Shown piece by piece: positions 1-48,058 of a stretch of DNA of 64,000 nucleotides. This stretch comes from Chiridota heheva. Taxonomy: Eukaryota; Echinodermata; Holothuroidea; Apodida; Chiridotidae. The notes under the pieces are model-generated. The model saw only the letters and a list, made by a program, of their open reading frames with translations. It searched no databases and was not told where the DNA came from. The stretch covers positions 1,057,501 to 1,121,500 of the forward strand of contig JAIGNY010000196.1 in NCBI GenBank assembly GCA_020152595.1. Direction: 5' to 3'. Position numbers and translations under genes: made by a program. Position 1 is the stretch's first letter. Every line of letters begins with the position of its first letter.

Positions 1-3165
<3,165 letters not shown>

Positions 3166-12378: not shown

Positions 12379-18865
<6,487 letters not shown>

Positions 18866-25347: not shown

Positions 25348-26007
25348 CCGATGCGTGATCTGCTAATGTTGCATGCCGAAAACCTAGGATATCATTAACT
25401 GAGTGCGATGACGGCCAGTGACAAGCCCGGAATGGTCCACAGTGTCCACCCGCTGCGGCAGCGGCGGCTGCTGCCGCTGCCGCCGCCTTTGAACTGACAC
25501 CCCCTGCCACGGGCGATGGGGTACACGGGTAAGGGTAGATTGCTGTGTTATAAAATGATCTGTGGGCGTCCTTAGGGTCATACGGGTGATGCTGGAGATG
25601 TGATATTGTACTGTTTCCTATTTTGTTTCTTAGAATTCTGCTTATTGAACTGACGGAAGGTACATTATATTTATCGCATACTCCTTCAGCTAAAAGTTTG
25701 TCTCTGATTTCCCAAGCAAATATTCCCGGATCCCTTTGCTTATATTCCCTTATTTTCTTGACGACATTCGGCGTGGTGACCCTTGGTTTACTCCCGCCGA
25801 TGGCTCCCGGTAGTATTGACCCTGTTTCGTTGTACCGTGCTAGTATTTTGCTGACACATCCATGTGAGACCCGAAGTTGGCGGCTGATGTCGCACGGTCG
25901 GATACCAAGCTGGGCTAGCTCGACGATGCGGAGTCGAATAGCATTTGGTAGAGGACGCCCATTGACGAATACGCCTCCCAGTTGATTGACTTCTCCAAAC
26001 GTTTGTT
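25348..26007 (-). CDS. pax1/9: Pax1/9 exon with paired domain, poly-Ala and octapeptide
   Basis: Encodes a paired-box transcription factor of the Pax1/Pax9 group, a nuclear DNA-binding protein; in deuterostomes the family patterns pharyngeal endoderm (family knowledge). Reading in, [20 protein letters not shown] opens the complete paired domain (about 128 residues), with the PAI half followed by the RED half ending near [11 protein letters not shown] linker rich in His, Tyr and Pro follows, then 12 consecutive Ala codons of mixed type, then the octapeptide HSVNDILG, which in this family recruits Groucho/TLE. No homeodomain follows, as expected for Pax1/9. The acceptor is on the minus strand at 26,010-26,008 (CCTTCCACTCCAG, pyrimidine-rich). 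The donor is G|GTAAGTT at 25,348/25,347, leaving phase 1. The open frame runs upstream through the acceptor to an ATG at 26,071, so an alternative first exon is possible, but the splice signal is strong. Downstream exons are missing. The assignment rests on near-diagnostic paired-domain sequence and is very secure. Confidence 0.97.
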
Positions 26008-28769
26008 CTGGAGTGGAAGGATACATGCCATAAAAAGCCATTAGTGGGGATTGATTATTATAGAAATACATGAATCTTTGAAATTGTTACAAACTTTTAC
26101 ACAAGATTTCAAAACTTTTTTTTTTTAATATCTCAATTAAAAGTTGGGAAAATAAAAAACAATTCAATACATATGTCACGATATATGTTTTTTTTTTTCC
26201 CTTCCACACAAATGAATGAAACGAAACTTCCAAAAAAGTTTATAGTATTAGTTATCTCTCAATTGTACATCGCCACCACCAAAATCCTCCAAAGCACAAA
26301 ATGAACTTTCCAAGAATGGACGAAATTCAAAACACGACCACATCACTCTCAAACACTTCCAATAAAATCACTAAAAAGTCAATGTTTACAACGCGAAAAT
26401 CTTGAGCTTTCAAACTTTACTTCAGCATGGAACAACTTCCCTGGTCAGCAGAGGTCGCTTATGCAACAAACAAAAAAACACATTGCCAAACAACAAATAT
26501 CAATCATTGATGAAAATAGAATAAGCACAACTTTTTTGGCGATGACTGCTTTTCAACTACCCTTGCGGTAAGGTCGACCGAGGCCTATAACAATGTCACC
26601 ATTATCTCCCGCGAGATTTCACGGTACAAAAAATAATAATGATAAAAAATCGTCCAAATTTTTAACATGTAAATCAATTCTTTTCAGGTCTCCGAGAACT
26701 TTTATAGAAAATATTATACAAGAATCCTATACGTCATGAAGCGCAGCGATCTATGGATTCATACTATGTTTTGTTCTTTTTAGCAGTTTGTCAAACTTTC
26801 TGAAAATTGATCTTCCAACTGTAAGGATAGCTCTCTTGTTTTCTAACTTGTGAATGTGAACTATTGACGCTTCGGTTGTATTGTTTGAACAACGTGCGAC
26901 ACATTTCCGCCAATATATTTCACTTCATCCAAACGGATTACTATCATAATAGCTGTGGGCAAGTTTACGTTGAGTCTTACGCCACACGGCCCGAAGGAAC
27001 GACGGCCAAAAAGTCAAGCAAAAAAAAAAAAAAAAAAGAGTATTATCTTTACTACTCATGAAAGCTATCACAACGAGTGTCACGCTGGATAAAACTTATT
27101 CATTGGATGAAAAGGGACATTTTAATTACTGCTCATTTAAATGTTTCAGTGTTACGAGCGTCGAATAATGAGAAGGTGTGATTTAAGCTGTCACTCGTGC
27201 TAATTATACCTCACTAGGGATGGACATTGAATTGCTAATGGCCATAAAATGGGTTTGGCGTATTGCGCATGAACTTCCAAAACCTAACTTATTTTTAAAA
27301 GCTTGGCACTAGGGTTGTTATTCGTCCACTTTAACTTTAGAGGGAAAAAAATAAATGAATATATTAAAAAACAAAAGCGGTTTCAATTTGTTGCAGCTTC
27401 TAAGGTAGGCTTATACGGAGGAAACAGAAGTAAGAGGTATAGTTTCCATTTGTTATACTCTATCCGATCGTTTAATCTCTATTTCTCAAAGTAAATCAAA
27501 ATTGATGTGAAAATGAAATTGTACGCATGATTTAAACGCATCTGTGTTCTGTGAAGTCAATCAGCAAAGCATATGGAATTATTACCAAAGCGGAACCGTT
27601 AATAAAAATAAAGATACAGCGTTCGAACAAAACTGAAAACAGAAACATGCACAGCACATCGAAGCATTTAATTTCATGATAATCACACGCTACATCTGCC
27701 TTGGTTTGATATTGCTCACAAATTTCGCACTTTTTATATAAACAGACAGCTACACTTCACTTCTGTTACTTGGAAAAATATGGTTGGATTTTCAAGCGGA
27801 TTAAAAATTATTTGATTCAAGATCTATTTGTCTGTGGGCAACAGTATCTATACTATTTAACTAATCAATTAAAAGAATAGCAAAAACTCCCATCAAACTC
27901 AGATATAAATCCCTTAAGCTTTTTTGTCTGTTGGTATTAACAGATTAATGAGCAAATCTTCGCTATTTTCATTAGTAAATCCTTTGTTTTATTTTCTTTT
28001 TTATCATGCACCACACTGACAATTGCTTTACTGGGAAGAGCTGATTTGGACAACACCCGCAATCAGCATTTTGATGGAGCAAGTATTAATTTCTCATCAG
28101 CGATTGAAATGGGGGGAAAAACGTAAACAGGTCAAAAATTGCAACAAGATGTCTTCCTGTCAGCCTGTTCACGTCACGACTTATCTTTCATGTGCTAAAA
28201 ATCCTTAAACATTGATACGCCAAAACTTGAAAACCACATGCTAATTTCAAAAATTAAAAGACTGTTGTTCTTAGATCTTAATGCTGCAAAGAAAATTATA
28301 TAATATTGATTCCTTTTTATAACTAAACAGCTCAAGAAAATATTCAACTCTTCAAATTTGTGATGTCATCAGTCAGTCAATGAAAGAGCTCACCATCTAT
28401 TGGCGTAAACACAGGTAAATGCATTGTTTATCTCTTTTACTTACACGTTTGAGAGATGGACACTGCTGTATCTAACCTGTCTAACCAAATCGGAATTTAT
28501 TTTGATCTTTAAATCTCATTTGTTGCTTCAGATGTTTTGTATTTATACAGAGGCATATTCATACAATATAGACCAGCAGATAGCTCTTAAAGTATACAAC
28601 TGTTTAAACTTTCATATTTTCTCATTTATATGCTTTTTTTGCTATCCGAAATTTTGCGCTCATGATTCAACGTTATACAATTAAGTTAATCTTGATTCGG
28701 AAAATATGATATCTCTGAATTGCGGGCCATCCCGGTACCATTTTATAAACAGTATGTTTAGTTTTCGAT

Positions 28770-29436
28770 TTAAAAGGTCAGTTTAGTGGTCAAGTAAGTC
28801 TATATCAAAGAGGATTTTAAATGAAACAGAATAGTGAAAAAACCTTTAAAAACCTGATTCCGTTAAAGGATTAGTTCAGTAGCCAAGCAAGTTTATCTTA
28901 GATTAAAGCGGATTTAAAAAGAAAGAAAATAGTGAAGAAAACAATAAAAAATCTGATTATGTTATTAAAGGAGATATCTAAGTTTAAAGTTTGGCATCCT
29001 GTGTGTAGAAATGACTGAAATCAGACTAGTTGTGATGTCACATCCTTAAATTCCTCAAAGTCTAGCATTTGTCCTGCGATTTTGAGGTTTAAAAAGCATA
29101 GGGTATGTCGGAAAGTAGTAAACCTGAATCTAGGAAGGGTATTTATAATATACCACCTGAAGAAACTTCGAGGAGATATAATCTGGACAGTAAAAAATGT
29201 AAATAAACTTTCTTTAAAATACATTAACAATTGTTAAGAATGTGAGGATGAAGACACCAACTTTCCCTAGTAGACTTACTACACCAGTCATTTCTACACA
29301 GATAAGACAGCGCTTTAAACTTGAATATCTCGTGAACGGAATAAAAAATTTGAACGCTTTTATCACCATTGTGTTTCTTTTGAAGTCGTCCATCATATAA
29401 GATGGACATGCTTGACCCCTGAACTAAACTTTCAAC
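28770..29436. mobile_element. long-TIR MITE copy with doubled left end
   Basis: Left end modules at 28,770 (TTTAAAAGGTCAGTTTAG) and 28,864 (TTAAAGGATTAGTTCAG). Arms of about 150 bp are inverted: AGAAATGACTGAAATC on the left against CCAGTCATTTCTACACAG on the right. Right end CTTGACCCCTGAACTAAAC. The central part holds TTGTCCTGCGATTTTG and ATATACCACCTGAAGAAAC. Confidence 0.85.
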
Positions 29437-29445
29437 AATATAATA

Positions 29446-29900
29446 AAGTTTACAATTCCGTCTCATTTGGCTATACAACTGTACAAACAACTGTACAAAC
29501 AACTGTACAAACAACTGTACACACAACTATACAAACAACTGTACAAATAATTGTACAAACAACTGTACAAACAATTGTACAAACAACTGTACAAACAACT
29601 GTACAAACAACTGAAATCAAACTACTTGTGACGTCCCACCCGCACATTCCTCAAATTCATGGTGTATTCTGATAATTTTTGTGTGTAAAACACTTGGTAA
29701 GGTAGGGGTAATTAACATCAACCACCAAAAGAATGTTTGAAGAAAGAAATTAAATTAGTAAATAAATACATTAACAAGTGTTGAGAAAGCGAAGTGAGGG
29801 CGCCAACCAAGTACATTAGCTAGTCTATTATAGTTGCAGTACTTTCTGCACCATCATATTTCTCGTTCTTATTTGCACATGTTTCATATAAGCGGAACTT
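29446..29900. mobile_element. long-TIR MITE fragment invaded by a 12-bp minisatellite
   Basis: AAAGTTTACAATTCCGTCTC resembles the family's arm, followed by the 12-bp array. The family's ACTGAAATCAAACTA..TTGTGACGTC block then resumes, as do later blocks (CAACCACCAAAAGAATGTTTG, ACATTAACAAGTGTTGAGAA, GGGCGCCAAC). The end at ~29,900 is diverged. Confidence 0.65.
29473..29612. repeat. minisatellite, 12-bp unit (CAACTGTACAAA)
   Basis: About 11-12 tandem copies of a 12-bp unit with few changes (TAATTG, TATAC). Because 12 is a multiple of 3, one frame stays open (Thr-Val-Gln-Thr repeats), which explains the overlapping open frames. Confidence 0.98.
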
Positions 29901-30165
29901 ATGATTTGCATAACCAGGGATTAACAAATTCATACGACGATTAATCCTTAACATATTTGTGTTGGATGATTAAAAACAATGCATTTACTTAATTAAGATA
30001 ATAGAAAAGTCTGCCATGTTATACTTGCATCTCAGCATACCCCTGATTCTGTAAAATTTCATGCGGATTTTTGTTATTTTTATGGATTTTAATGGGTTTT
30101 TAATCGCTTCTGTTATTGTTACCTCGTACACCTAATTCAGTTTAGTTTTCAATCAATACATTTAA

Positions 30166-30735
30166 GAATTCATTCAGTGGTCAAGCATGTCTATCTTGTA
30201 TGAGAGGACTTCAAAAGAAACAAAATAGTGAAGAAAGCATTCAAAAAACGTATTTCGTTAAGGAGATATTCAAGTTTAAAGTTTAGTATCATTTGTGTAG
30301 AAACGACTAAAATCAGACTAGTTGTGATGTCATACATGTCATAGGCTCAGACTTCTCATGTATTCTATTATATTTTGTCCTACGATTTGTTGGCTTAAAA
30401 ACCATTGGATATCCTAAGAAAGTAGTAAAATATAATCTTATAAGGGTAATCATAATTTACCTTCTGAAGAAATTTTGAGGAAGAATGATTCAAATAGTAA
30501 AATTGCTTAATAAATTTCTTTAAAATACGTTAACAATTGTTAAGAATGTGAGGATGAAGACGCCAACTTTCCATAGTAGATTTAATGCACTAGTCATTTT
30601 TCACAGATAAGACAAAGCTTTAAACTTAAAAATCTTTTTAACGATAAAAATGTTTTGACCGCTTTCTTCACCATTTTGTTTCTTTCTAAATCCTCTTTCA
30701 TATAAGATGGACATGCTTGACCACTGGACTGACCC
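30166..30735. mobile_element. long-TIR MITE copy
   Basis: Left AATTCATTCAGTGGTCAAGC, right GACATGCTTGACCACTGGAC. Contains GAGGACTTCAAAAGAAACAA, TTAAGGAGATATTCAAG, AGAAACGACTAAAATCAGAC and GAAGACGCCAACTTTCCATA. Arms inverted as in the other copies. Confidence 0.85.
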
Positions 30736-31088
30736 TTTGATCTGTTATAATACAAACTTTAATCTAACACGCGAGCTTGTAAGAGATTTCTGATACGATT
30801 TTCGGTGATATTGTGCCGCTTTGTTTTGATATCCCTAAGAAATCATTCTTCGAGTACCATAATCTATTTGTCTTTATCATTTTATATATTTCTTCATTTC
30901 TGTTTCCCTGGCAAATTTTATATCTGACTAAAAGTTAATTCTTGTAGGTTTTCCTTTGGCAACAATCCCAACGTATAGATGATTTCACGCTTGGGTTTGT
31001 TGGTCATCAGATGCATCGTTGTAATCTGCCCATGCGAATTAATGACGTTCTTTTTCAAAGTAAAAACTTCAACCATAGATAATCAAAG

Positions 31089-31116
31089 ATATATATATAT
31101 AGTATATATATATATG

Positions 31117-31168
<52 letters not shown>
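31089..31168. repeat. (TA)n microsatellite
   Basis: About 80 bp of TA with several G interruptions. Confidence 0.97.
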
Positions 31169-31173
<5 letters not shown>

Positions 31174-31510
31174 AAAACACCCAACAATTAGTGGGAAATG
31201 TGACCACTTTAGATTTAAAGTGCCACTCCCTCTGCCCCTTGAGTTTACTCTGCTGCTATATTGTGTACAAACCGTTGCAAGGTAAGAGTGACGTCAAAAC
31301 ATGGCATTGCCATGCATTCTTGATACAAAGTATTAGGCACATGAAGAGATGGGTAAAATATTTTCAGATTGTCTGATTGTTTGCATCATTCAATCTCATC
31401 TCTATCAATTCAAAACCCATTTTTCAAATCATTTTAGTAAAGACGTCATATCAGAGTAATACATATAAAAATTGTCATGAAAGTGCATGCCCATATAACA
31501 TGACGTCACT

Positions 31511-31791
31511 CGACGACGACGACGAGTAGTGAACACACAATTACAATGACGGGGTCGTCGCCTGCGTATTCGGTTATGATAGTGACAATGCTATCACGAA
31601 ACGCTTAATACGACCCGAACGAGAACACAGGTACGACGTACGCACATACATAACATTGACAACCAAGTCAATGTCCACGGCCTTTGATAAGTAGTTGTGG
31701 TGCACTGGCGTGTCTACCCAACCCAGGCTTGAACCCAGGGCCTCGTGGTTTGTAGACATGTATGATAACCGCTACACCACAGTAGGTAGAC
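31511..31791 (-). mobile_element. full-length tRNA-derived SINE with 13-bp TSD
   Basis: The tRNA-like head is at the right (minus-strand 5') end: A box TGGTGTAGCGGTTATCA and B box GGTTCAAGCC, with a perfect 7-bp acceptor stem (TGTCTAC at 31,711-31,717 pairing with GTAGACA at 31,786-31,792). A body of about 180 bp follows and then a tail of TCG repeats at the left. A perfect 13-bp target duplication ACATGACGTCACT flanks it (31,498-31,510 and 31,792-31,804; one boundary base is ambiguous). Pol III promoter boxes are as expected for a SINE. The best-preserved copy in the window. Confidence 0.93.
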
Positions 31792-32525
31792 ACATGACGT
31801 CACTACTGCACCAGTCACTTTTATGAGCACACTTGTTGGAATCTTTGTAATTCGATATTTACCCAAATTACCTTCTATCATATAAAGTACACATGCACGA
31901 CCACGGGAGTAAACTTTTAATCAATTTATATTGTATGGGGTTTTCCATCGATATGAAATAAACAATTACCATATGTTGAATTTTTCACAAATTTAGTCAA
32001 AAAGGCAACATTAAGGTTTATTTCACTCATGTTTTGGTCATATATGTTTATATCTACGATATGCTACTTTTTATTTACTCCTTATACATATACTGAATCC
32101 ACGAAAAGTGCAGGTAGAAATTAAAAATTATTTTAATGGTGCAAGCTTGAAAAAAAAAATTTACACGAAATTATGACGGAAAAATAAACCATCATATACT
32201 GATGTAGGTATATAGTCTCTATACGCTAAGCCTGCAAAGCTCTTAATATAAAATCGGGTAGCAACTTCTAAGATTTGCAAGGCTTAGTGAATATCATCAC
32301 TTTCAGGGCTAACGTCAGAGGAGGAAAAAAAGCGTCACCTTTCCCCATTGGAAAACATCTAGCCCCGGCGTTAGAGATTGTTTACTTGTCAGGAAACGAT
32401 TGATAAGAGTAAATGTAGCTGAAATATTTATCGATTATTCCCACCTGGAAAATCAAGTGACCCCTCCGCCGTCACCTACAATCTCAGGAAGTAACGTCAT
32501 GAGCGCTATGTCTCCATCAATCAAG

Positions 32526-32799
32526 CACGGCGCACGACATGCATCGCGCACGACATGCATCGCGCACGACATGCATCGCGCACAACATGCATCGAACACG
32601 ACATGCACGGCGCACGACATGCATCGTGCACATGCACGGCGCACGACATGCATCGTGCACATGCACGGCGCACGACATGCATCGTGCACATGCACGGCGC
32701 ACGACATGCATCGTGCACATGCACGGCGCACGACATGCATCGTGCACATGCACGGCGCACGACATGCATCGCGCACGACATGCACGGCCACGAAATGCA
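32526..32799. repeat. GC-rich minisatellite, 29-bp main unit
   Basis: Begins with 15-bp CGCACGACATGCATCG-type units, then about five nearly perfect 29-bp units (CATGCACGGCGCACGACATG + CATCGTGCA; starts at 32,602, 32,631, 32,660, 32,689, 32,718). It then degrades rightward to about 32,910. No stop codons occur in most frames, so six-frame translation gives several false proteins of 105-162 residues. Confidence 0.97.
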
Positions 32800-34569
32800 C
32801 GGCCTCGATATGCGCGGCCCACGACATCCACCGCGCACGACTTACGTGGCTCACGACAAGCAAGGCCCACGACCCGTGCGGCCTATGACATTTGCGACCC
32901 ACGAAATATGCAATGGGCATGATTTTCTCTACAGTTTGAGAATACCGTATGAAAAGTGTGAATCATATTGTACATATTTACCAGCAGGCTAAAAGCTGAT
33001 AAGGCAATGTTTAGCATGCATATATACCAACGACAATGATGAAGAAGCGTTCCCATTTTTGACTGCTCAAAAATTTGAATGATGACGAAAATGACGATGA
33101 CGACGACACAATAACTGAGAGAAGAAAATCACAGAGTTAGTATAATTAGAAAACTACAGTCGTTTTGAAAATCTTCGAAGTTTGTTTAAATGAACAGAAC
33201 ATGACTATATGTCATTATCATCATGTACAAAAGAAATTGACGGAATTACATACAGATTTTGAGCTTTTCTCCCTGCAGTTATCAACTCACAACTTAAGCA
33301 CACATTGATGTTTAAATATTCACTGTTCAAATTTTCTCAAAATTTCATCAGCCATTTCTTGAAAACTAAACTATCTATTTCCAAAATTCAATTACTGTTC
33401 TATACCCAATACAAAACAAAATCACTTTTATACTCCTTCCCATTATACGCCAATTATGCATATTAATAGGAACATTTATAACACACGAGAATATTGAAGT
33501 CATGCAGCCATATTGTTCAGATATTGCGATAAAATGTCATAGTTTCTGTATTTGAAATATCAAAAATCATTGTCTTAAAAAACATTTGAATTTTTAAAAT
33601 GGCCGTTTCGCGCCTAAAAGCCTAGCTCTATTGTCCATTTGATTTAATATTTCGAAAACGGCGTTGTGAACATATTAGATGGGAGTGGAAAATGTGTAGT
33701 CATGACAGTAATTAAGGTATTTCCATAAGTTTTAAGTTTCCCCTAGCAAAGATATTTTTCCCAGACGTATTTTAAATTTGAAAAATGTAACATTGCATAA
33801 GTCTTGAACGTTAGGATAGCAAAGGATCATGGAAAATATCACAAAATGGCGGCTTCTATGTAGCAAATTGTTCCCATTAATAGGAACATTTATGTTATTA
33901 TTAATAGGCATGCTACCGGACTGCTAATTGTTATCCAACAATGTTAAAGCATTAGCTGTGAAAATAAACACCTGCTAATGATCAGATCTATAGATAGATA
34001 TTAGTGTAGGCCTATTAATGTAATTACAGATTAATCGAAGTAATAATGTGAATCGATCCATAATGTAATGTTGTTGCAATTGATTTGGCAACGTCACAAT
34101 TCATGCTCACGTCATGCACGTAATCATTTTCTAAGCTAAAAATTATTACCTCAATATTTTCAACGAATTTATGAGACGGAATATAATTCAGCCGTCTGTT
34201 TACAGGGTTATGGTTTGTTATATAGTTCATGTATCCATGTCTTTATAGTGTATATAATTTTTTCTTAAGTCTTTTTTTATAAAATCTTTTTGGTTAGATA
34301 TATAATGGTCAAGTTTCCTTTTTGTCTGTTTATGTACATTCTTTTTATTGTTTCGATCAGGAAACCAAACATACTGCGTCTCATATGTATCATTTCAGCC
34401 AGTCAGCAACAATTTTAACCCACATGGAGTTTAATACATAATTATATTTTTTCATTAATGAATTATAAAGAAAAGTGAAAATACGTTTCTTGGTTCGCGT
34501 TATAGATAAACTGACTTATTTGCTTATTTGCGGTAAAATGTTATACCGTATACGGTCTATATATAGGAA

Positions 34570-34720
34570 GAAAGATTGTTGTAAAAATTGTAATAAGTGT
34601 TTAAAAAAGTGAGGATGTGGGCGCCACCTTTTTGTAGATTTCTAACTCCAGCTGACCAGTCAGTTATACACAAATGAGAAAAAAGCCTAAAATTAAACAT
34701 ATATTCGTTAATGTTCAATG
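34570..34720. mobile_element. long-TIR MITE fragment
   Basis: Contains family-like blocks TAAAAAAGTGAGGATGTGGG, GCGCCACCTTTTTGTAGA and GACCAGTCAGTTATACACAAA. Only a central/right part is visible. Confidence 0.45.
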
Positions 34721-34791
34721 TGGAATACAAAATAGGCGTAGTCAGGTAGTTGAAAAACAGATAAGTTCTAATTCAGTAGACCTCGGTAGAT

Positions 34792-35332
34792 CTTGCACCA
34801 ACATATCTTGCACCAACAAACCTTGCACAGACCCTGCACAGACCCTGCACAGATCATGCACAGACAGACAGACCCTGCACAGATCATGCACAGACCCTGC
34901 ACAGACCATGCACAGACCCTGTACTAACAGACCGTGCACCAACAGACTCTGCACCAACAGACCTGCACCAACAGACCCTGCACCAACAGACCCTGCACCA
35001 ACAGACCTGCACCAACAGAACTGCACAAACAGACCGTGCACCAACAGATTTTGCACCAACTGACCCTGCACCAACTGAACCTGCACAAACTGACCCTGTA
35101 TCAACTGACCCTGCACCAACAGACCTGCACCAACTGACCCTGCACCAACAGACCCAGCACCAACAGACCTGCACCAACATAACTGCACCAACAGACCCTG
35201 CACCAACAGACCGTGCACCAACAGATTCTGCACCAACTGACCCTGCACCAACTGAACCTGCACCAACTGACCCTGCACCAACAGACCCTGCACCAACAGA
35301 CCATGCACCAACAGACCATGCACTAACAGATA
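34792..35332. repeat. minisatellite, about 15-bp unit (CCTGCACCAACAGAC)
   Basis: Over 30 copies of a 14-15-bp unit with variants (CTGCACAGAC at the left, CTGCACCAACTGAC in the middle). Length variation between units shifts the frame, yet stop codons are rare, giving false open frames up to 193 codons on both strands. Confidence 0.97.
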
Positions 35333-35715
35333 GCTTATACAATAATATTAACCTTTCTGCCTTTACCATTTGGCTTTTGTATGCGTTTCAACATTTTCTT
35401 GCTCTTTTTGAAATATGAAAGCGTTTTTTATTTACTAATTTTACTTACTTACATGTATAGTCTCTCATACTTAATATTACATTTGATAAAGCTTATAACA
35501 GTTCGAGCGCAAATGAAGAATTATAGAATTAACAATTTGATTCATTGACTATCTTCAGGAGATGGTATACGACAAAAACAGAACTTAAATTTATAGGAAC
35601 AAGAAATAGTTTAATGAGCTTCAAATAGCTGAATAGTTTATCCTTAAATTATTTGGGATTTTGTTATTTATTATTCTTTTCTTCCATTCATGATACAACC
35701 AAAATGGTATGGCAG

Positions 35716-36120: not shown

Positions 36121-36180
36121 ACCTCCCTCCCTGCCCAAGACATGAATGAATCAAAATTCGCAACTTTGCATATATTTTTT

Positions 36181-36256: not shown

Positions 36257-37839
36257 ATCCAATCGGGAAAAAATGGAGAAACGAAAAATGACGTCAAAAC
36301 AATGAAATTGTCTTTTTGCAGTCGTTTTAACAACTATTTATTTGGTACTTTGTTTGGCAATGGTGGTCTTATATACAATCATAACTTAAGGACGCCATAG
36401 CATGAATCAATCAAAATACTTATCGATCTTTAAAAAATATAGAAGATACGTCTATTGTTTAAAAAATGCAATGAATTTTCACAAAAACCCAACATATTTG
36501 GTAATAAATTGTATACTATGTACTTTATACAATATAGGCAGTTTATATTTCGTAATAAAGTTTTTTAGTTAGAACGTAGCGCGCGATTTCATTTCGAAAA
36601 TTGACAAAGCGTATACGGAGAGCGACAATACATCTTACCCTTCTTATAGACAATTTTATCATTACATAAAATGCAACCACATGTTTCCACCACCGTTCCG
36701 TCTCCCCGGTGAGATTTTTCTTAAAGTCCAATAAATTCGTCTAAAAACCAGAACTGATTACAACTGAACTAATCAAACATTTTAAGTACATATTAATTTC
36801 AGTGTAAGAATATAACGGGTTATTACGCGTTCCGGTAAAGAAAAACTTTAATACCATGGTAAAATGTACTCATTTGATAAACGAGGGGGGACATAGTCTT
36901 TCATTAAATTCTATTTAAATTAAGTATTAACATGCGTGTGTACATTTATGATGCAAAACGAAAATAATGAAATATGTTAATTGACATAAACATTAGCTAT
37001 ATTGACTGATTGACAGATGAGACTTGCTTGACTAATTGATTTTCAGAGGGGCATTTTCCCACTAAGTAATGCAAATAGGCCTGCTACTATATAGGACTTA
37101 TTACATGGGCGAATTGCCACCAACATTGGCTGATTGGTCTCCGTATCCATACACCGTCCTGCTTGATCAATTATCTTTAAAAGGTGTGTTCAGGGTTCCC
37201 GGTACAGTTGTAAAGAATTGTGAAAAGGGTGGTGAAGGGATATTACATACTATTTCTATTGTTTAAAGGTCATCTATCGTGATTAAAATGTGGCGGCATA
37301 CATTTTATTTGAAAACGATACTGATTGGCCTATCAATGTGAAGTGCACCTTGTGCCATTGTGTTTCGACCAATCAAAACACAATAATTGAATTCTTTTTA
37401 CCCCGTGCGTTAGAAACGACAACTGGCCTTTAAAACTAAATTGGCCATTAGAAGCAATTTTAAATTATACTTAGAACATTATTTACATTTTAAAAGTAGC
37501 GTCTTCATGTTCAAAGCTATGGCTGATCAAAATACCCAAATTTTTAGTTTAATTTTGAGAATGATTTCATTCTCCTTTGTAGGGTCAAAATTAGGATTGC
37601 TCTAAGCAGACCAACATGGGCAGAACATGCACGAAAATAACAAATTATTCCGTTGTAGGGCAAAATGAGCTTCACATAGCCATTCCAAATCAATTTGTAT
37701 TCCCAAATCAACCTGGTCACAGATAATCATGCCAAAATAAGAAAGACATGACCAAACAAAGAACTTTTACGCGTGCAATTATATAGCTATACCCACATCA
37801 TACAGTTATGGTTAAATGAACAGCAGCCTGTAATCATAG

Positions 37840-38312
37840 CCATACCAAAATCACTTACGCATACCCATACCAAAATCCATTAGGGGACCTACGCATACCC
37901 ATACCAAAATCCATTAGGGGACCTACGCATACCCATACCAAAATCCATTAGGGGACCTACGCATACCCATACCAAAATCCATATACCCATACCAAAATCC
38001 ATTAGGGGACCTACGCATACCCATACCAAAATCCATTTACGGGGACCAAAATCCATTAGGGGACCTACGCATACCCACAAAATCCATTAGGGGACCTACC
38101 ATACCCAAAATCCATTAGGGGCATACCCATACCAAAATCCATTAGGGGACCTACGCATACCCATACCAAAATCCATTAGGGGACCTACGCATACCCATAC
38201 CAAAATCCATTAGGGGACCTACGCATACCCATACCAAAATCCATTAGGGGACCTACGCATACCCATACCAAAATCCATTAGGGGACCTACGCATACCCAT
38301 ACCAAAATTTAA
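37840..38312. repeat. minisatellite, about 34-bp unit
   Basis: Units of CCATTAGGGGACCTACGCAT followed by ACCCATACCAAAAT, about 12 copies, several shortened (near 37,980, 38,040, 38,080). The array decays rightward to about 38,462 with CCATACCAAAATCA-type remnants. Non-coding; the minus-strand open frame (Val-Gly-Pro-Leu-Met-Asp-Phe-Gly) is a repeat artefact. Confidence 0.97.
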
Positions 38313-39410
38313 TGCGTATAACCATACCAAAATCAATTACGGAGAATTTTACCAAAATTAGTTACGCACAACCATACCGAGATCAGATGAGCAAAACCAA
38401 ACCAAAATCAGTTACACATAACCATACCAAAATTAAAAACGCATAGCCATACCAAAATCATTAATGCGTAAGCCCACACTTTTGCCGAGAATCTCTAACC
38501 AAGGATAATCCCCCACGAAGAAAAATGGCATGCACGTCCACACTTTTTGAGGTTACGTTATTACTATTTCTTTTCCCAGAGCTCCGCCTTCCCCCACAAC
38601 AGCAGTAAATCTTGCGCCGTCTCAGCCCGAAGGTCCCGGTCTTGTCCCGAAACCTATTACGCACATTCGATGCAATCTATGCTTCCTTCCTGTGCCCCTA
38701 CCAGTCAGTCTGAGTCAGTCAGTCAATGGTTTGAGGAAAAGTGACGTCAGGCTGTCAGGGGTTTTCGGAATGACGTGTTGCCTCTTGTTGTTCTCCATAA
38801 TAAAAGAACAATTGTGGTCGGGGAGTAACTGAAGTGATTAATATTTTTTAAATAATCTTTTTTTTGTTTATTAGAGATGAATAAACTTTAATATGGAAAA
38901 AGTTTCCCCAGAAGCTATATTTGTTTAAGGCGAGAGCGTTGAATTTCATTTGTCATTCCAACGTGGAGTATTTTTGAGCGTTAAAAAATTGAGCATGGAT
39001 TTTCACGTTCTTGAATGAAACCTGTATGTGGCAAAAATATCATACGTCAGTATACGTGAGAAAACACGAAATATGACGAACACAACGTGATATTTGTACG
39101 TACACATTAGGCCATTCAATGGCTTGAAGAAAGCTTTTTTACAACTTCATGATCTTTCTAAACAGCTAAAGGTCAGTGAAAACCTACAAAGTGATAATTA
39201 ATTAAATATTATGTGAGATACATCATCAGAATAGCATTTGTTAGTTTCTGAGTTGTTATTGTTGTTTGTGGTTTATAATCACGATAGCAGACGCCCTCTT
39301 CATGTAAAGTACTGGTTGGAGACCGCCCGTGGATCAATCCCCTGGGGGCACTTTGTCAAGGTGAATTATTGGTTTCAAGTTTTTCAAACTTGGGTGATTT
39401 TTTAGTATAT

Positions 39411-39525
39411 GTGCAGAAAATGTAATGTGCAGAATATGTAATGTGCAGAATATGTAATGTGCAGAATATGTAATGTGCAGAATATGTAATGTGCAGAATA
39501 TGTAATGTGCAGAATATGTGATGTA
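39411..39525. repeat. minisatellite, 16-bp unit (GTGCAGAATATGTAAT)
   Basis: About seven copies of a 16-bp unit, nearly identical, with the first and last units diverged. Confidence 0.97.
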
Positions 39526-39833
39526 CGGTGCAAACAGCCAAATAATGAAGATATTTGCTTAATTTGTTTTAAATTCCAGTCATAAAAAATGATAGGCAGA
39601 TAGGAACATCTATTCAAGAGTATATTCTTACAACGATAATTTAAAACAAAGGACTTACTCTGTCACTGAACGAAAGCACTGGTTATAGAAATTCCAGCAA
39701 TATTTTATATTTCACTTCAATATCGGTTCTTATTGAACTGTCAAAATATCGCATTAAATCAAATTTTAAAGTGTTCAGGAGATTGTCTATCATGCTAATT
39801 TTACGAGGTATTGTGATAGCTTAGAAGTTCTCC

Positions 39834-40274
39834 GAAAGAATTAGTTCATTGATTAAACAAACTCATCCAAAAAAGACGACTAGAATAAAATAAACATATA
39901 TGTTGAATAATTACATTGAAATCCTTCTCCGCGTTATGGAGATATTCAAGTTTGGAAGCCATGTCTCATTTGTGTAGAACTGGTACTAGTAGAATGACTG
40001 GTGTGAAAAGTTTATTGCAAAAAGTTGGCGCCCTAATCATTATTTTCTTAACAATTTTATTGTAATTTTAAAAAAATTATTTGAAATTTTTCTCCAAAAT
40101 GTCTAAGTGGTAAATTGTAGTTACTTTAATAGATTCTGTTTACTGCTAACCTTTCCATTTCCAATAGTTTTCAAAAAATCAAAGAGAAAATACAATAAAA
40201 TACATAAAGACTTTGAAGAAATGTCATAACTGATAGTCTGATTTCAGTCGCTTCGACACAAATGAGACTTATCT
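39834..40274. mobile_element. long-TIR MITE, diverged copy
   Basis: Starts AGAATTAGTTCATTGATTAAAC. Contains GAGATATTCAAGTTTGGAAG, GTGTAGAACTGGTACTAG, AAAAAGTTGGCGCCCT and GATTTCAGTCGCTTCGACAC, with the right end merged with the next copy. Confidence 0.6.
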
Positions 40275-40945
40275 CCTTAAATGATTAGTTCAGTGGTCAA
40301 GCAAGTTGATCTTTATATGAAAGAGGACTTTAAAAAAACAAAATGGTAAAAAAAGCATTCAAGAAGATTTTCAAGTTTAAAGCTGTCTTATCTGTATAGA
40401 AATGACTGGCGTAGTAAGTCTACTCTGGAAGGTTAGCACTTTCATTATCACATTCTTAACAATTGTTAATGTATTTTAAAGGAAATCTATTTTTTTAAAA
40501 AAAATAATAGGCCCATATGAATTATCATTCCTCGATGTTTCTTCAGGTGGTAAATTATAATTACCTTTACCTGTTTACTAGATTCTGTTTTACTACTTTC
40601 CTGACATATTCAATGGTTTAGAAGTCACAAAATCCGGCGCAGGACAAAACATTATAGAACACATAAAGATTTTAAAGAATCCATAACTGTGACGTCACAA
40701 GTCTGATTTCAGTCCGTTTCTACACAAATAATACCAAGTTTTAAACTTAAATATCCCTTAACAGAATATTTTTTAATGCTTTGTTCAGCATGTTATTTCT
40801 TTAGAAGTCCTCTTTCAAGATGGATTTGCTTGACCCTGAACTAATCTTTTAATGGTTCAAGATATTGAAGTAGTTTCTTTACCTTTTGAGGGGTCCTCTT
40901 TTATTTAAAATGCACTTGCTTGACCACTGAACTAATTCTTTAACA
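40275..40945. mobile_element. long-TIR MITE copy with an extra right end
   Basis: Left TTAAATGATTAGTTCAGTGG. Right arm TCAGTCCGTTTCTACAC, ending CTTGACCCTGAACTAATC near 40,850. A second right-end module follows (AATGCACTTGCTTGACCACT then GAACTAATTCTTTAA, to about 40,945). Arms inverted around AAATGACTGG / CAGTCCGTTT. Confidence 0.8.
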
Positions 40946-41499
40946 GTACTCTTCTTCCCTTAATGCATTACCACGTGATTGCGAGAGGCAGGCAAACAGC
41001 GAGAAACACGTTGCTCTATCGAGATTGCGGTATAAGCTTCAAAGTTTATGTGCAGATGTCCGTTTCAGAATATTAGCACAATGGTCTTATTTTGTACACT
41101 TTTATTGGTACCCTATTTTTTGATTTTGGGTTGCTCATGTCATGGTCGATAAATGTTTGAATAATTTCAAATATGTAAAACATTTGCGTTAAAGGAAGTG
41201 GAATTAAGATCGTAATATAAATCTTAAATCTCTCTCCTAAATTTCAAAACAAAACTTTTTTTGAAAAAATTGATTACAGTTCTAGTCTCCAAGACTCTAA
41301 ATTAGTGACCTGATGACTTTTAAAAAGAAGTCAGAGGTGGTTTATTACGAAATAATAACATATTGTTAAATCTACATAATTTATTTACATATTCTGCGCT
41401 CTTTATAATCTCAGGGAAGTATTTAAGTAAATAATTATACCCACCAAGTATGCATGGAATAAGTTGTAAACATTAATATATTTTGAACGAGAAATCTTA

Positions 41500-41575
41500 G
41501 TTAAATTTAAGTTTATTACACTTATATGGCGCATTATTTAAAGACCTTATTCTAATGCGCCTTTACAAAATATGC
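41500..41575 (-). mobile_element. probable LINE 3'-end fragment
   Basis: On the minus strand, TTGTAAAGGCGCATTAGAAT followed by AATGCGCCATATAAGTG resembles the GCGC-hairpin 3' ends of CR1/L2-type LINEs (compare TAAGCGCC..AAATAACATT at 58,650). Short and without coding sequence. Confidence 0.4.
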
Positions 41576-41947
41576 ATATAAAGAAAAAAAATACAAATGT
41601 GTAAATAAGATAAGCATGAAATATAAAGAAAACAAAGAACAAGAAAATTATGAGGAGGAATTGATATATCGGATTCGGATATTCGTTCGGGTACTGAATG
41701 TTATGTCTTTATACTCTTATAGGAATCACAAATTGTTTTGCTTTACATTTTACAATCAAAGGAAAGTCAAAAAGAAAGTTTTAAGAAGCAACAAAGAAGT
41801 TGAAAGAACATCAGAATCGAAAAAATACCATTTTGTTACTTTGAATTTTTGAACAGAATTGTATCGCCGTACTTATCAAGAATAAATACAGCGCATCAAA
41901 TAGATACCTCTAAGACTGTAAGATGTTCGTAAAACTGTTTGAAGGAA

Positions 41948-42205
41948 AGGTATATTGCCATAAATAAATTTAGAAGTGAACCTCGCCGTGCTGGTAACGT
42001 CACTTCCGGTTCTCGATTTTCCTCATTAATTGCGAGAAGTTTGTGATGATATCGATAGCACATGTAGGCTCCAATGTTCGGTCCAGCTGATGTGTGATCG
42101 ATAATATCGCAGATTTCTCACAATCAATAAGCAAAATTGAAAACCGGAAGTGACGTTACCAGCACGGCGGTGTTCACTTCTGAATGTATTTATGGGACAA
42201 TGCCT
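41948..42205. mobile_element. MITE with about 55-bp inverted repeats
   Basis: AGAAGTGAACCTCGCCGTGC at 41,971 is inverted as GCACGGCGGTGTTCACTTCT ending at 42,182, and TGGTAACGTCACTTCCGG is inverted next to it. Outer flanks (CCATAAATAAATT / GTATTTATGGGA) continue the inversion. The interior is about 80 bp. Non-coding; superfamily unknown. Confidence 0.75.
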
Positions 42206-42251
42206 TTTGTTTGAACTAAAACAATATGTGGATATTAGAGAGAGAGAGAGT

Positions 42252-42453
42252 TGAACACACAATTACAATGACGGGGTCGTCGCCTGCGTATTCGGTTATG
42301 ATAGTACAAATGCTATCACGAAACGCTTAATACGACCCGGACAAAAACACAGGTACGACGTACGGACAGACATAACATCGACAACCAAGTCAATGTCCAC
42401 GGCCTTTGATAACCAGTTGTGGTGCACTGGCGTGTCTACCCACCCCAGGATTG
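42252..42453 (-). mobile_element. tRNA-type SINE, head-truncated copy
   Basis: Same body as at 31,511 (CACAATTACAATGACGGGGT, GGTACGACGTACGGACAG), running into CTACCCACCCCAGGATTG at the start of the tRNA head, where it breaks off. The tail end is GAGAGAGAGAG instead of (CGA)n. Confidence 0.85.
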
Positions 42454-43195
42454 AAAATGATAAAACCACAGTTAGATGTGGGACATTAACTTAGTCGGGC
42501 CCTTTTAAATGCTTATCATATTTTTGATTAAATATATTAACGTACCCTTAGAATATTGTTATGCTAAATATTATAATTTTTAGTTGTATTTCGAATTTTT
42601 CTGTATTTTGTACGATGCTGAATAGAAGTTATCTGGCAACAAATTGATGACGTCAGTAAGTACTATCCTGCAATGTATGACTGTGACATCACTTCGATTT
42701 ATTTTAAGACGAGATCGCCCTTTAAACAGATACATGCAGGTAACTTCAATATGCTAAAATATAAATCCAATAAAAACTTAAAATATAGCAAATATTTCCA
42801 AATAATTGATTGAAAACTGATCATGTAACAGTTGTTTAAATGGTCGGTGTTAATATGCAAATGTTTATGTAAATTTGTTATAGGCAAACCTCTCTGTTAT
42901 CGGATTTTCTTGTAAAAATCTATTATTTTTTAATCATGAACCACGAATTTTTCAAGGATCTCACATTTTGTTGTTGTTGATCATAATCATTCACGAATCA
43001 AATTTTATATAGATGAAGAGGTTAGTCTTAGAGACTAAAAATAAGAACAAAAATATAAATAATTGCATAACATATTTTACGCTGTTTTACTGTTCATATA
43101 TCACAAATTTTGCAAAGTTGTGTACTCAAATAGCCATGAATAGAATATTAGATATAGCCTACTATTGACAAAATGTAAAGACTACTCTGCTCAGA

Positions 43196-43463
43196 TAAAT
43201 ATAAAAAAAAGGGAAAATATAAGAAATAAAGGGAACATTTTAGAAATAAAAGGAAAATATAAGAAATAAAGGGGAAAATATAAGAAATAAAAGAAAAGTA
43301 AGAAATAAAGGAAAAAATATAAAAATGAAGGAAAAATATAAGAAATAAAGGAAAAAAAGTAAGACATAAAGGAAAAAATATAAAAAATAAAGGAAAAATA
43401 TAAGAAATAAAGTAAAAATACAAGAATTAAAGGAAAAAATATAAGAAATAAAGGAAAAAATTA
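43196..43463. repeat. purine-rich minisatellite, about 20-bp unit
   Basis: About 13 irregular copies of GGAAAAATATAAGAAATAAA. Almost pure purine on the plus strand. Phe/Leu/Ile-rich minus-strand open frames are artefacts. Confidence 0.95.
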
Positions 43464-43610
43464 TTGTAGCTGTCCCAGCTATATCAAGAAGTTCGGATGT
43501 AATATAATGTTTGGCTTTGGCAAAACATCTAATCAACGTTCAGCTGGATATTAAATTTAAACTCTTAAAAGGGTCTTCATTTACTGAAAGCGAATGACCT
43601 GCCTTTAGAT

Positions 43611-43694
43611 TATCATTATTATTATTATTTTTATTATTATTATTATCATCATTATGATTATTATCATTATTATCATCATTATTATTATTATTGC
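43611..43694. repeat. (ATT)n microsatellite
   Basis: ATT/ATC trinucleotide tract with a few interruptions. Confidence 0.95.
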
Positions 43695-45432
43695 ATAAAT
43701 TAAGTATATTGGATCTTGTGTCTGCCATGATTCGAAATTGTAAAAGTTTTCCAAATTTGAAGGCTTTTCATATTGAAAATTCAGTAACTCTTTTCTTTAC
43801 AAAAAGTAATCAAAAAAGCACAATTATAATATTTTCGATATAAGGAAAATAAATTTAATAAAATAAATTTCCTTTGAGAAACTGATGAAAGTAAACTGAG
43901 ATTAATATGTTATTGTGATTGATTTTTGTTTGTGTTTTTTTCTTTCTTTCTGCAGTTGAACTTGACTCCACTCCGAAAGTCTTAATCTATATAATCGCCT
44001 TGGAACTGCATGTTCGTTCTTTGTTCTTCTGCCTTCGCTGCCCCACTCTGCCCATCTCAACACCCCTTCCTCTCTTCTTTATGCCTTATCAAGTCTTTAC
44101 AAGGTAATACAGACCCACGGGGGTACCACCCTTTACGATGGACGTCAATTATAACACAGACTGGCAGAAGTGTTACTTTCCACGAGGTGAATATATATAT
44201 ATATGACTGACGAAGGTATCAATTTTTCCGATGTATTGATGATTTAAAAGATTTGCTGCATTTTGAACATGAAGAAGAGTTTTTTTTTGTTTTTTTTTTT
44301 GTCAAGATCTACCGAAAAAATAAATGGCGGCGAAAGAACAATCATTTTCCGTTGTGAATGTTTCATCAAAAACTCATATAATTCTGCCACAATTAAAAGT
44401 ATAGTACTTAAAGATGATGCAGCAAGATGGTATTTGATTAAATGGACTTGAATCCAGGGAGCCAGCATTTTAAATTGATCAATAACAGATCGATCAAATG
44501 GAGGAGTCAAAAAAAATAATGAGGCTTCCACTTTATAAACCGATATACCTCTTAATTTATTTCATGTCGGCATTACTTTTATTAGTCTCTTCCAGTCGTT
44601 GTTGCTGTCATTATTACATTTTTGATCATTAGTACATTTAATGATTCTTGTTATTGTGTATATAGTTTACAGCAAGTTTATTAGAATCGCATTAACATTA
44701 AAACGGCTTAATTTATTATACCATACCAGTGACCTTTGACACTCAAAAAATAAACACAAAGATAATCATCTTTTGTCGTGTTTATTAGCTTTTTGGACCT
44801 TAACTAGATCACTATTAAATTAATTTCGCTATCACAAATATCGATTAATTTTTAACACTTTCGGCGTTGATTAATAATATGTAGTCACTTTGACAATAGT
44901 TACACGAATTTTGGTACGATTTTGTCCATGCAATTCAGTAGAATTAACAGGTTTTTTCTTATTAAATATACCACTTCTTATCATTATCATCATTATCATC
45001 ATTATTATTCATTTAAATGCTATCTTCTGAAACATTGTAGAAAAAGTTCTAAACATCAAAAAGATTATTCCTATTGTTCTTTTCATTAATCTTTTGCCAT
45101 TAGTTAGAACTACTAATTCTTCCATTCAAATCATGTAAGTTGATCTGAAATTTCTTATTTTCCTTATTACAGCACCTGGTACTTAAATTTTAAAACAAGA
45201 ATAAAGAGATTTTTCTATATATCAAAATTAAAAGAGCAGAATAGAAACATTATTCATTTAAATGAAATTTGATGAATAACTTTCACCGATTTCAGATATT
45301 TAATAAGTCACGCAAAAATATGCAAGAACGTATTTCATGCATATTTACAAAGGAAGTGTTTATCGATATTGGAATATTAAGAACATTCACTGATGATTCA
45401 CAAATTCTTCTTTTCCAATTTTTTATTTTTTA

Positions 45433-46011
45433 TTAAAGGATTAGTTCAGGGGTCAAGCAAGACTATCTTCTATTCCAACGAAACAAAATAGTAAAGAAAA
45501 CATTCAAAAATCTTATTCTGTTAGGGAGATATCTAAGTTTAAAGTTTGGTATCCTTTGTGCAGAAACGACTAACATCTATCTGACTAGTGATAGCCTCAG
45601 ATTCCTCAAAGTCTTCATGTATTCTATCATATTTTTTCCTGCGATTTTGTGGCTTAAAAACCATGGGATATGTCAAGAATAAAGTCAGAAGTCAAACTGA
45701 ATCTAGGAAGGGTATTTATAATATAACACCTAAAGAAAATTCGAGGAAAAATAATTTAGATAGTGAAACAAATTAAATAAACTTTCTTTGAAATACAAAA
45801 GCAATTGTTCAGAATGTCAGGATGAATACAACAACTTTCCATAGTTGACTTACTACACCAGTCATTTCTACACAGATAAGACAGTCTGCTTAAAACTTGA
45901 ATATCTCCTGAACGGAATAAGATTTTTGAATGCTTTCTTCATCATTTTGTTTCTAATGAAGTCCTTTTACACATAAGATGGACATGCTTGACTACTGAAC
46001 TAAACTTTTAA
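45433..46011. mobile_element. long-TIR MITE copy, TTAA at both ends
   Basis: TTAAAGGATTAGTTCAGGGG on the left and CTGAACTAAACTTTTAA on the right. Arms inverted: AGAAACGACTAACATC against AGTCATTTCTACACAG. Central TTTCCTGCGATTTTGTGGC and GGAAGGGTATTTATAATAT. One of the cleanest copies for judging the ends. Confidence 0.88.
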
Positions 46012-47994
46012 GTGCAGAGAAAAAAATATTTCAAATGCCTAAGAAAGTATGGACACATGACGGATACGGTATGTCACAAAATATCTGTCATATTATTTTG
46101 GATACATATAATGGATTCATTTTATTGTTTTGTTTTGGCGCATTACAAGATGGTGATATAGATATGGGTGTTATGTCTTTATCTTGACAACCAACAACAT
46201 TTTAGAAACGAAATCATTTGAGTGATTGAATGTTGTTGTTCTTGTGGCGCCATCGATTGAAAACATTTACTTTTGATAACTAATTGATTACCATTAAAAG
46301 AATAACATATCTAAAATCAGAGCAACACTAGGTAGTAACAACTGTAAACAATATAGATGATATCAACGGATTCAGAGTATTTGCGTGACTTCAACAATTC
46401 AACTGGTAAACTCAACAACAAAAAGTTGATTATTTTAATTCTAAAACGAAACAGTAATATAAATTGAAGGGATATTAACATTCATTTGAATTCTTCATTA
46501 CATTTAAAACGAAGGAAATGTCACACAAACTATATTCCTTCAAACTATTAAGTAACATTTGTACCAGCATTCGGTTTGAACTGCTGTATCGTCTCATTGC
46601 AGCGATCATGCGTTGACTGCCCGTTTAGTTTAATTCAATTTGTTGTGATTTGTTCCATATATTTAATTCAGACACAACTGCAATAACATTAAATTAATTT
46701 CAACAATATGCGGTTGGTATCAACCTTGACTTTGAATTTATATTTACAATCAGTAGTCACCGTCAAAATAAAAATTGATTAAATGTGTATAAACAGATAA
46801 AGAAGAACGAATCAATTGTCTTACAATTTTGAACTCCAACAAAAGAAAAAATAGCTTTGCACAACTTGACTGTCAAAACAACAATCATGTTTGTTTCGTA
46901 CTTTAGTAAATAAGAAATTCCAAAAAGTTGAACAACTGAAGAAATGAGTGGAACTTTTGGATTTTTTTTTGAAGAAAATATATTTATTTTGATGGAGACT
47001 CATGAAAAATTGTAGTTTTTTCAGTTTATAAAGTTGAACTAAGATATTGATATTTGTTTAATTCGGTTGCATGGAGTATATCCAATATGCCAGCAAAACA
47101 AATTTAACAAAGAAGTTATTCGGCGACTTATATTGTAATGTAAGAAAACTGTTAGAAAAACTACTTGTAGAAAAAGTATATGCGACAACCTTTCACCCTC
47201 CGCTGGCATGTAACAGTGTAAAATCGGAAATACTCGATTTTTTCAAAAATTCTAAAGAAGGGATGAATCCGTGAACAGTTCTCATTGCAACAACTGATGA
47301 AGTTATGTTTGTCGTTAAATGTTAGGTATGTTCGCCCCACACATTCAATTTGTACAAAGTTTTCCTCGAGGTAAATTTTGAACAAAGGACGAAAACTGAA
47401 ATTGAGGTAAGAAACAAAATCATTAAAAATCTGTTAAAAGTACGAATGAACCACAAATAGCCATTTGGATAGTTTTTGTTTGAATTATGAAGTAACTCAC
47501 TTTTCTTTTTTATTTAAAGCTACCAAATGGTTCCTTTTTTTAATTTGTTTTCATTTATTATTTTTCTGCAATTTCCTAAACTTTCAATGCATTTAGTTTT
47601 CTTAAAACATATCAAATTATCAATAAGTCATTATTTTAATTTCAACGTAAATTGGATAGACGTATGTATTCTCCAGATATTTAGAATAACAAATCACGTG
47701 ATTTCAAATTGCAAAGGCCTAAAAAATGAAAACGGTTTTTTATCCTCTAAAAGAGAAACTAAACCAACAAAAAATACCGGTCAAAGAAATTGCAATTTAT
47801 GATATTTACGGCTTAAATTAGACAATTTGGTTGAGTTTTAAATTTCTGCAAGCTATACACCTGCTGATGCGATTCAATTGCAAATGAAAATTTTCAAAGA
47901 AAACATATGTGATCAATAACTAAACCGAAACATGTATTTTTTTATGTTTTTTTTGGTTTATTTAAATGGCAATTATTTGAGAAAAAGAGCTTAC

Positions 47995-48058
47995 CCATTC
48001 CCACAGTTCGTCCAAGTAGCATCCGCGGAACGCCACCGCCGACTGAGCTCAAATTCAT
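47995..48058 (-). CDS. pax1/9: Pax1/9 first coding exon (5' end)
   Basis: Candidate first coding exon, about 22 kb upstream of the paired-domain exon. The frame has ATGs at 48,058, 48,022 and 47,998 and ends ...ATG G|GTAAGC, an excellent donor at 47,995/47,994 in phase 1. Joining to the acceptor at 26,007 gives [10 protein letters not shown] in frame, matching the vertebrate Pax1 start (M-E-Q-T-...) and the Pax9 pattern, where exon 1 contributes little more than the start codon (recalled, not checked). The third ATG has the best start context (G at -3, G at +4), so the real coding part may be only 47,995-47,998. The two upstream ATGs, beginning M-N-L-S-S-V-G-G-G, would add 20 residues. The exon is locally GC-richer than the introns. 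Phase, splice sites and homology agree, but no transcript evidence is available. Confidence 0.75.

What the first reader, a model, noticed from the sequence alone, without database searches (positions are those of the whole stretch)
25348..48058. Pax1/9 start codon on a tiny exon 22 kb upstream
Seen: donor ATGG|GTAAGC at 47,995 and acceptor CCACTCCAG at 26,008 join in phase 1 as M-E-Q-T-F-G-E-V. Known: vertebrate Pax1/Pax9 proteins start M-E-[QP]-[TA]-[YF]-G-E-V, and in Pax9 the first exon carries just the start. Inference: the intron position is ancient, and here the true coding part of exon 1 may be only 4 nucleotides, making it easy for gene finders to miss.
Basis: partly seen in the sequence, partly recalled or inferred. 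Interest (0 to 1): 0.7.

Follow-up and report, generated by a model that had tools for sequence, protein, structure and literature searches.

The report
Pax1/9 start on distant first exon
This stretch holds an invertebrate (probably echinoderm or hemichordate) version of the developmental gene Pax1/9, whose start codon most likely sits on a separate exon 22 kb upstream of the main one, an old intron arrangement that human PAX9 seems to share; real, but a conserved and largely expected gene structure.

Summary
The sequence facts are right. On the minus strand ATGG|GTAAGC ends at 47,995 and CTCCAG| ends at 26,008; joined they read [13 protein letters not shown] in phase 1. The gene is Pax1/9. 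The acceptor is well supported: 87 of 11,105 AGs score as well, CTAAT lies at -34, and the five Pax matches of this genome with a visible paired-domain start all have a phase-1 acceptor there. So the intron is an old Pax-family intron. Exon 2 has no methionine; a transcript using this acceptor must start translation upstream. The donor at 47,995 is the best candidate, not a proven one: of 63 donors scoring at least as well, it alone follows an ATG directly, and among 20 frame-compatible ones it has the highest upstream CpG o/e, though by construction the lowest donor score. No RNA evidence was available. "Only 4 coding nucleotides" is open: in-frame ATGs at 48,058 and 48,022 allow 64 or 28 nt; the last ATG has the best context. 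A read-through start at 26,071 is a rival. The contig carries Nkx2.1-, Nkx2.2-, Pax1/9 and FoxA-like genes in deuterostome pharyngeal-cluster order. Ordinary, conserved gene structure; useful for annotation.

The parts
48001..48800 (-). CpG-rich stretch directly upstream of exon 1 (presumed promoter)
   Evidence: 41 CpG, o/e 1.18, 15th by CpG count of 1,109 overlapping 800-bp windows; centred windows at 47,995/48,050 are less striking (5-13% of windows reach them); the 600 nt upstream of the donor have o/e 1.39, reached by 3.1% of 1,482 control stretches. Promoter role inferred.
48134..48139 (-). TATAAA-like element (weak, could be chance)
   Evidence: Read directly; such a 6-mer is common in AT-rich DNA. 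No start-site data.
47995..48127 (-). Open frame of exon 1 up to the donor; the 5' end of the exon is unknown
   Evidence: in-frame ATGs at 48,058, 48,022 and 47,998; context features (purine -3, G +4) 0, 0 and 2 of 2.
47995..47998 (-). ATGG: proposed start codon plus first base of codon 2, directly before donor GTAAGC
   Evidence: of 63 donors of equal or better score in the sequence held upstream of the acceptor, the only one with ATG directly before its last base.
26008..47994 (-). Intron 1, 21,987 nt, phase 1
   Evidence: the junction is inferred, not observed in RNA.
26040..26044 (-). Branch-point-like CTAAT, A at -34; no AG between it and the acceptor (previous AG at -69)
25348..26007 (-). 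Exon 2 (660 nt): EQTFGEV, whole paired domain, octapeptide HSVNDILG; ends GCATCGG|GTAAGTT, phase 1
   Evidence: Pfam PAX 6e-68 over residues 26-148 of the joined protein.
26008..26071 (-). Rival start: in-frame read-through of the acceptor from ATG 26,071 (also 26,041 and 26,026), [28 protein letters not shown]
   Evidence: frame open to 26,086. Acceptor evidence speaks against it; the CpG evidence is mixed.

Best explanation
This is a Pax1/9 gene of a deuterostome (probably echinoderm or hemichordate), lying in the pharyngeal gene cluster. Transcription starts from a CpG-rich promoter near or above 48.1 kb on the minus strand. The exon that ends at 47,995 carries the start codon and is spliced over a 22-kb phase-1 intron to the exon that encodes the paired domain. 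The intron is the old intron that precedes the paired domain in several Pax classes. Translation starts at the last ATG (47,998; 4 coding nt, protein MEQTFGEV...) and/or at the first in-frame ATG (48,058; 64 coding nt, 20 extra residues). Shown: the splice-site sequences, the frame, the shared phase-1 acceptors, the absence of Met in exon 2. Inferred: the promoter, the use of this donor, the choice of ATG.
For: The joined frame gives the Pax1/9 N-terminus. Acceptor: 87 of 11,105 AGs score as well, the only AG scoring above 1.1 bits within 300 nt upstream, CTAAT at -34. All 5 Pax matches with a visible NQLGG start (of 8 matches; the other 3 are C-terminal half exons) have a phase-1 acceptor directly before the paired domain. 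Donor: 63 of 6,633 GTs upstream of the acceptor score as well; 20 of these are compatible in phase with an in-frame ATG; 47,995 ranks first of the 20 in upstream CpG o/e and is the only one of the 63 with ATG directly before its last base. Best context at the last of its three ATGs. Human PAX9 has its start codon at an exon-intron boundary (title only). Two lamprey Pax6 genes and mammalian Pax6 have only a few residues in the first coding exon (passage in PMC6925180).
Against: No RNA evidence. No related animal genome could be searched, so conservation of exon 1 is untested. The donor score is ordinary (4.4 bits by a recalled human-like matrix); since it set the threshold it is the lowest of the 20 candidates, some of which reach 7.6 bits, and 7 of the 20 (itself included) have an ATG with both context features. 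Centred CpG windows do not separate exon 1 from exon 2: at 800 bp both have 31 CpG, reached by 6.4% of windows. An exon beyond contig position 1,221,500 or in stretches that read N cannot be excluded. The two upstream ATGs argue against a 4-nt coding part under strict first-AUG use.
Confidence: 0.75

Rival explanations
1. The protein starts on the paired-domain exon itself: a proximal promoter makes transcripts that read through the acceptor from ATG 26,071, 26,041 or 26,026 ([28 protein letters not shown]), and this is the main form.
For: Frame open from 26,086 with three in-frame ATGs; the glutamate is kept because the intron ends in G. At 800 bp the region around 26,007-26,100 is as CpG-rich as that around 47,995 (30-31 CpG), though it includes the exon itself; the 200 bp around 26,300 have o/e 1.24.
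Against: The acceptor is strong and shared with four other Pax genes. The 200 bp around 26,100 are CpG-poor (2 CpG), and further ATGs lie just upstream. An open frame of 26 codons is not rare (about 13% by my estimate from base composition).
Confidence: 0.12
2. The acceptor is used but the start codon lies on a different upstream exon, inside intron 1 or beyond 48 kb.
For: 19 other phase-compatible donors with an in-frame ATG and a donor score at least as good in the sequence held upstream, 2 of them (28,394; 29,640) in intron 1; 6 of the 19 have an ATG with both context features.
Against: None of the 19 has an ATG directly before the donor's last base, and all have lower upstream CpG o/e (0.17-0.87 against 1.39); the pattern M-E-Q of vertebrate PAX1 (recalled) is given directly by 47,995.
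Confidence: 0.13
3. A sub-case of the best explanation: same splice, but the main start is ATG 48,058, so exon 1 codes for 64 nt and the protein has 20 extra residues (MNLSSVGGGVPRMLLGRTVG-MEQTF).
For: First in-frame AUG of the open frame; no other ATG between 48,127 and 48,058. Mammalian PAX1 also has residues before MEQTYGEV (recalled).
Against: Poor context (T at -3, A at +4) against G at -3 and G at +4 for 47,998.
Confidence: 0.4

Closest known systems
Vertebrate PAX9 (and PAX1)
   Same: Protein start M-E-[QP]-[TA]-[FY]-G-E-V (recalled and from the finding); start codon at an exon end, paired domain on the next exon. The match of exon 2 to a recalled human PAX9 is 67% over 230 columns.
   Different: Two more in-frame ATGs upstream in exon 1; intron 1 is 22 kb. 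The human exon boundary was judged from a paper title only, its phase is recalled, and human numbering seems to include a further exon upstream.
Other Pax genes of the same genome (read by me as Pax6, Pax3/7, Pax2/5/8 and one more)
   Same: Phase-1 acceptor directly before the paired domain.
   Different: Pax1/9 has two more codons between the acceptor and VNQLGG; the others start x|GT or x|AT.
Deuterostome pharyngeal gene cluster (PMC11175523, passages)
   Same: On this contig in order: Nkx2.1-like, Nkx2.2-like, a partial homeodomain found with an Msx query, Pax1/9, FoxA-like.
   Different: Spans about 770 kb; slc25a21 was not found on the contig at E 0.001 nor in 264 kb around Pax1/9, 39 kb of which read N; cnga, mipol1, xrn2 were not sought, and of egln only the 264 kb were searched (no match reported).

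Membership tests
Pax1/9 | Paired domain of Pax type | tested here: met
   Pfam PAX E 6e-68; best of the 8 matches in the genome, 228.7 bits.
Pax1/9 | Octapeptide H[ST]V[ST][DN][IL]LG (form given for lophotrochozoans in PMC5333810) | tested here: inconclusive
   HSVNDILG is present; it departs from the printed pattern at position 4 (N for S/T), and the pattern was made for another clade.
Pax1/9 | No homeodomain | tested here: inconclusive
   PF00046 is not among the 3 Pfam families found on exons 1-2 (PAX and two 'homeodomain-like' HTH models that overlap the paired domain); downstream exons were not found.
Pax1/9 | N-terminus M-E-[QP]-[TA]-[YF]-G-E-V | tested here: met
   MEQTFGEV after the inferred splice; the motif itself is recalled and taken from the finding.
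Pax1/9 | Linkage to Nkx2.1/Nkx2.2/FoxA (deuterostomes) | tested here: met
   Same contig, same order; the classes were assigned by eye or against recalled domains.
Pax1/9 | Linkage to slc25a21 | tested here: inconclusive
   No match near Pax1/9; 39 of 264 kb read N; the laxer search did not complete.
Pax-family intron before the paired domain | Phase-1 acceptor just upstream of VNQLGG | tested here: met
   5 of 5 matches with visible start, out of 8 matches.
PAX9-type 4-nt coding first exon | Translation starts at the ATG directly before the donor | not testable with these tools
   Needs RNA or protein N-terminus; the sequence allows 4, 28 or 64 nt.

The most novel reading that the evidence does not exclude
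Pax1/9 here has two promoters that make two N-termini: a distal one giving (N-extended) MEQTFGEV over the 22-kb intron, and a proximal one reading through the acceptor in frame to give [28 protein letters not shown], with the acceptor's branch point overlapping one of the proximal start codons (26,041), so that the choice of promoter and splicing exclude one another.
Probability: 0.1. Interest if true: 0.45.

Novelty: new member of a known kind. Interest (0 to 1): 0.3.

Why it matters
Pax1/9 is the classic gill-slit gene of deuterostomes. If the start codon sits on an exon with as few as 4 coding nucleotides, automatic gene models can miss or misplace the N-terminus and the promoter, and searches for Pax1/9 regulatory DNA will look 22 kb from the right place. 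That the Pax genes of one genome share a phase-1 intron before the paired domain gives a simple rule for correcting Pax gene models. It changes no concept.

Tried and rejected
Species: I first guessed a spiralian, even a cephalopod, from the number of Pax genes and the 1.1-Gb genome; the planned reflectin search did not complete. The guess is rejected by the Pax6 paired exon of exactly 347 bp, the size published for Echinodermata and Hemichordata (passage in PMC4488758), by three posterior Hox-like genes on one contig (classes recalled; 13 of the 14 fetched homeodomain stretches gave a readable frame in that script, L044 did not), and by the pharyngeal-cluster order. slc25a21 was sought and not found. 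Downstream Pax1/9 exons were sought by motif and not found, so the gene model is incomplete at the 3' end. Rfam: 0 hits at gathering threshold in the window. The nearest solved structures are other Pax paired domains, 4 distinct sequences, Pax5 best. The splice matrices are recalled human-like approximations, not trained on this animal. Dropped before counts: AG or GT sites touching N; the 3 of 8 Pax matches without NQLGG.
Full report
What is there. The minus strand of the window carries the paired-domain exon of a Pax1/9 gene at 26,007-25,348 (Pfam PAX 6e-68). The finding's two splice sites are at the stated places: ATGG|GTAAGC with last exon base 47,995, and CCACTCCAG| with last intron base 26,008. 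The join is in phase 1 and reads [13 protein letters not shown]. Exon 2 ends GCATCGG|GTAAGTT at 25,348, again phase 1. Exons further 3' were sought by motif and not identified.

The acceptor. By a recalled human-like matrix, 87 of 11,105 AGs in 264 kb of this contig (39 kb of which read N) score as well or better. It is the only AG above 1.1 bits in the 300 nt upstream (5.8 bits), with a CTAAT branch-point-like motif at -34 and no AG between it and the site (previous AG at -69). The own-genome search gave 8 PAX matches (only best candidates are scored, so this is a lower bound); 5 of them include the NQLGG start, and all 5 have a phase-1 acceptor directly before it: Pax1/9 CCAG|AA CAA, Pax6 GTAG|GT CAC, Pax3/7 TTAG|GT CAA, Pax2/5/8 GTAG|GT CAT, and a fifth Pax gene TTAG|AT GCC (class names by my reading; sites chosen by eye, scores). 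In the four others an in-frame stop lies within 15 codons upstream, so an acceptor is needed there. This is the best evidence that the Pax1/9 site is a true and old intron end. That human PAX2, PAX3, PAX6 and PAX9 also have phase-1 introns here is recalled. [quoted passage not shown] Passages of two other papers place c.409 in exon 3 (PMC10086135) and amplify exons 2-5 only (PMC10890363), so by that numbering the human start may be on exon 2. For Pax6, a passage of PMC6925180 says that two of three lamprey Pax6 genes have only a few residues in the first coding exon, as mammalian Pax6 does.

The start exon. Exon 2 encodes no Met, so a transcript using this acceptor must bring its start codon from upstream. 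In the sequence held upstream of the acceptor (to contig position 1,221,500, with parts reading N), 63 of 6,633 GTs score at least as well as the donor at 47,995; in the window 9 of 2,116. Of the 63, 20 are phase-compatible with an in-frame ATG, 3 of them in the window. The donor at 47,995 is the only one of the 63 with an ATG directly before its last base, and among the 20 it has the highest CpG o/e in the 600 nt upstream: 1.39, against 0.17-0.87 for the others; 3.1% of 1,482 control stretches reach it. Against it: since its own score was the threshold, its donor is the weakest of the 20, and 7 of the 20, itself included, have an ATG with both context features. The 800 bp from 48,001 stand 15th of 1,109 overlapping windows by CpG count, several of those above being tandem repeats; but windows centred on 47,995 and on 26,007 are equal at 800 bp (31 CpG each, reached by 6.4%), so CpG does not by itself tell the two possible starts apart. 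The motif alone is not strong: ATGGGTRAG is expected 0.65 times on both strands of the window and ATGGGTAAGC 0.08 times.

How many coding nucleotides. The exon-1 frame is open to 48,127 and has ATGs at 48,058, 48,022 and 47,998, giving 64, 28 or 4 coding nt. Context features (purine at -3, G at +4) are 0, 0 and 2. By leaky scanning the last ATG would be the main start; by strict first-AUG use the first would be. A TATAAA at 48,139-48,134 may or may not matter. I hold the short form slightly ahead of the long one.

Rival. The frame also runs through the acceptor to ATG 26,071. The acceptor evidence speaks against this as the main form; the CpG evidence is mixed (2 CpG in the 200 bp around 26,100, but o/e 1.24 around 26,300). 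It is not excluded as a second promoter.

Which animal. The Pax6 paired exon is 347 bp, the size reported for Echinodermata and Hemichordata (passage in PMC4488758). One contig carries three posterior Hox-like genes, the last in opposite orientation (classes recalled). Contig C189 carries, in order, an Nkx2.1-like homeodomain (544 kb), an Nkx2.2-like one (717 kb), a partial homeodomain found with an Msx query at 53% over residues 2-46 (830 kb; not read, class not established), Pax1/9 (1,083 kb) and a forkhead domain closest to FOXA2 (87% over 101 residues, against seven recalled Fox domains) at 1,313 kb. This is the order of the deuterostome pharyngeal cluster given in PMC11175523, which says that the complete cluster has so far been found only in deuterostomes (passages). 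slc25a21, its usual neighbour, was not found.

Verdict. It is a new member of a known arrangement.

Noticed in passing
G000:C189:544073-1313023 (L029, L030, L001, L045): Nkx2.1-like, Nkx2.2-like, a partial homeodomain (Msx query), Pax1/9 and FoxA-like domains lie on one contig in the deuterostome pharyngeal-cluster order, about 770 kb in all.
   Followed up: partly
L004-L007 (G000:C1360:1412640-1478009): Two Pax genes in tandem about 63 kb apart: one that I read as Pax2/5/8 and a second, diverged one with NQLGGTFANGRPLPNYIRHQ.
   Followed up: no
window 50605-52090 and 53570-55048: Two similar blocks of GATATC-rich tandem repeats about 3 kb apart, each with a similar 130-aa frame (51071-51463 and 54028-54420, minus; compared by eye), perhaps a duplicated mobile element.
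   Followed up: no
window 58117-58620: Frame that looks like the end of a non-LTR retrotransposon reverse transcriptase (LDYCNSLFTVMSRRDLTRLQRLQNRAARLI), judged by eye.
   Followed up: no
window 2036-2336, 12379-12672, 16112-16534: Three long (TA)n tracts of about 290-420 bp downstream of the Pax1/9 paired-domain exon.
   Followed up: no
G000:C1576:503768-640864 (L039, L040): Gsx-like and Xlox-like homeodomains 137 kb apart on one contig: ParaHox genes still linked (classes recalled).
   Followed up: no
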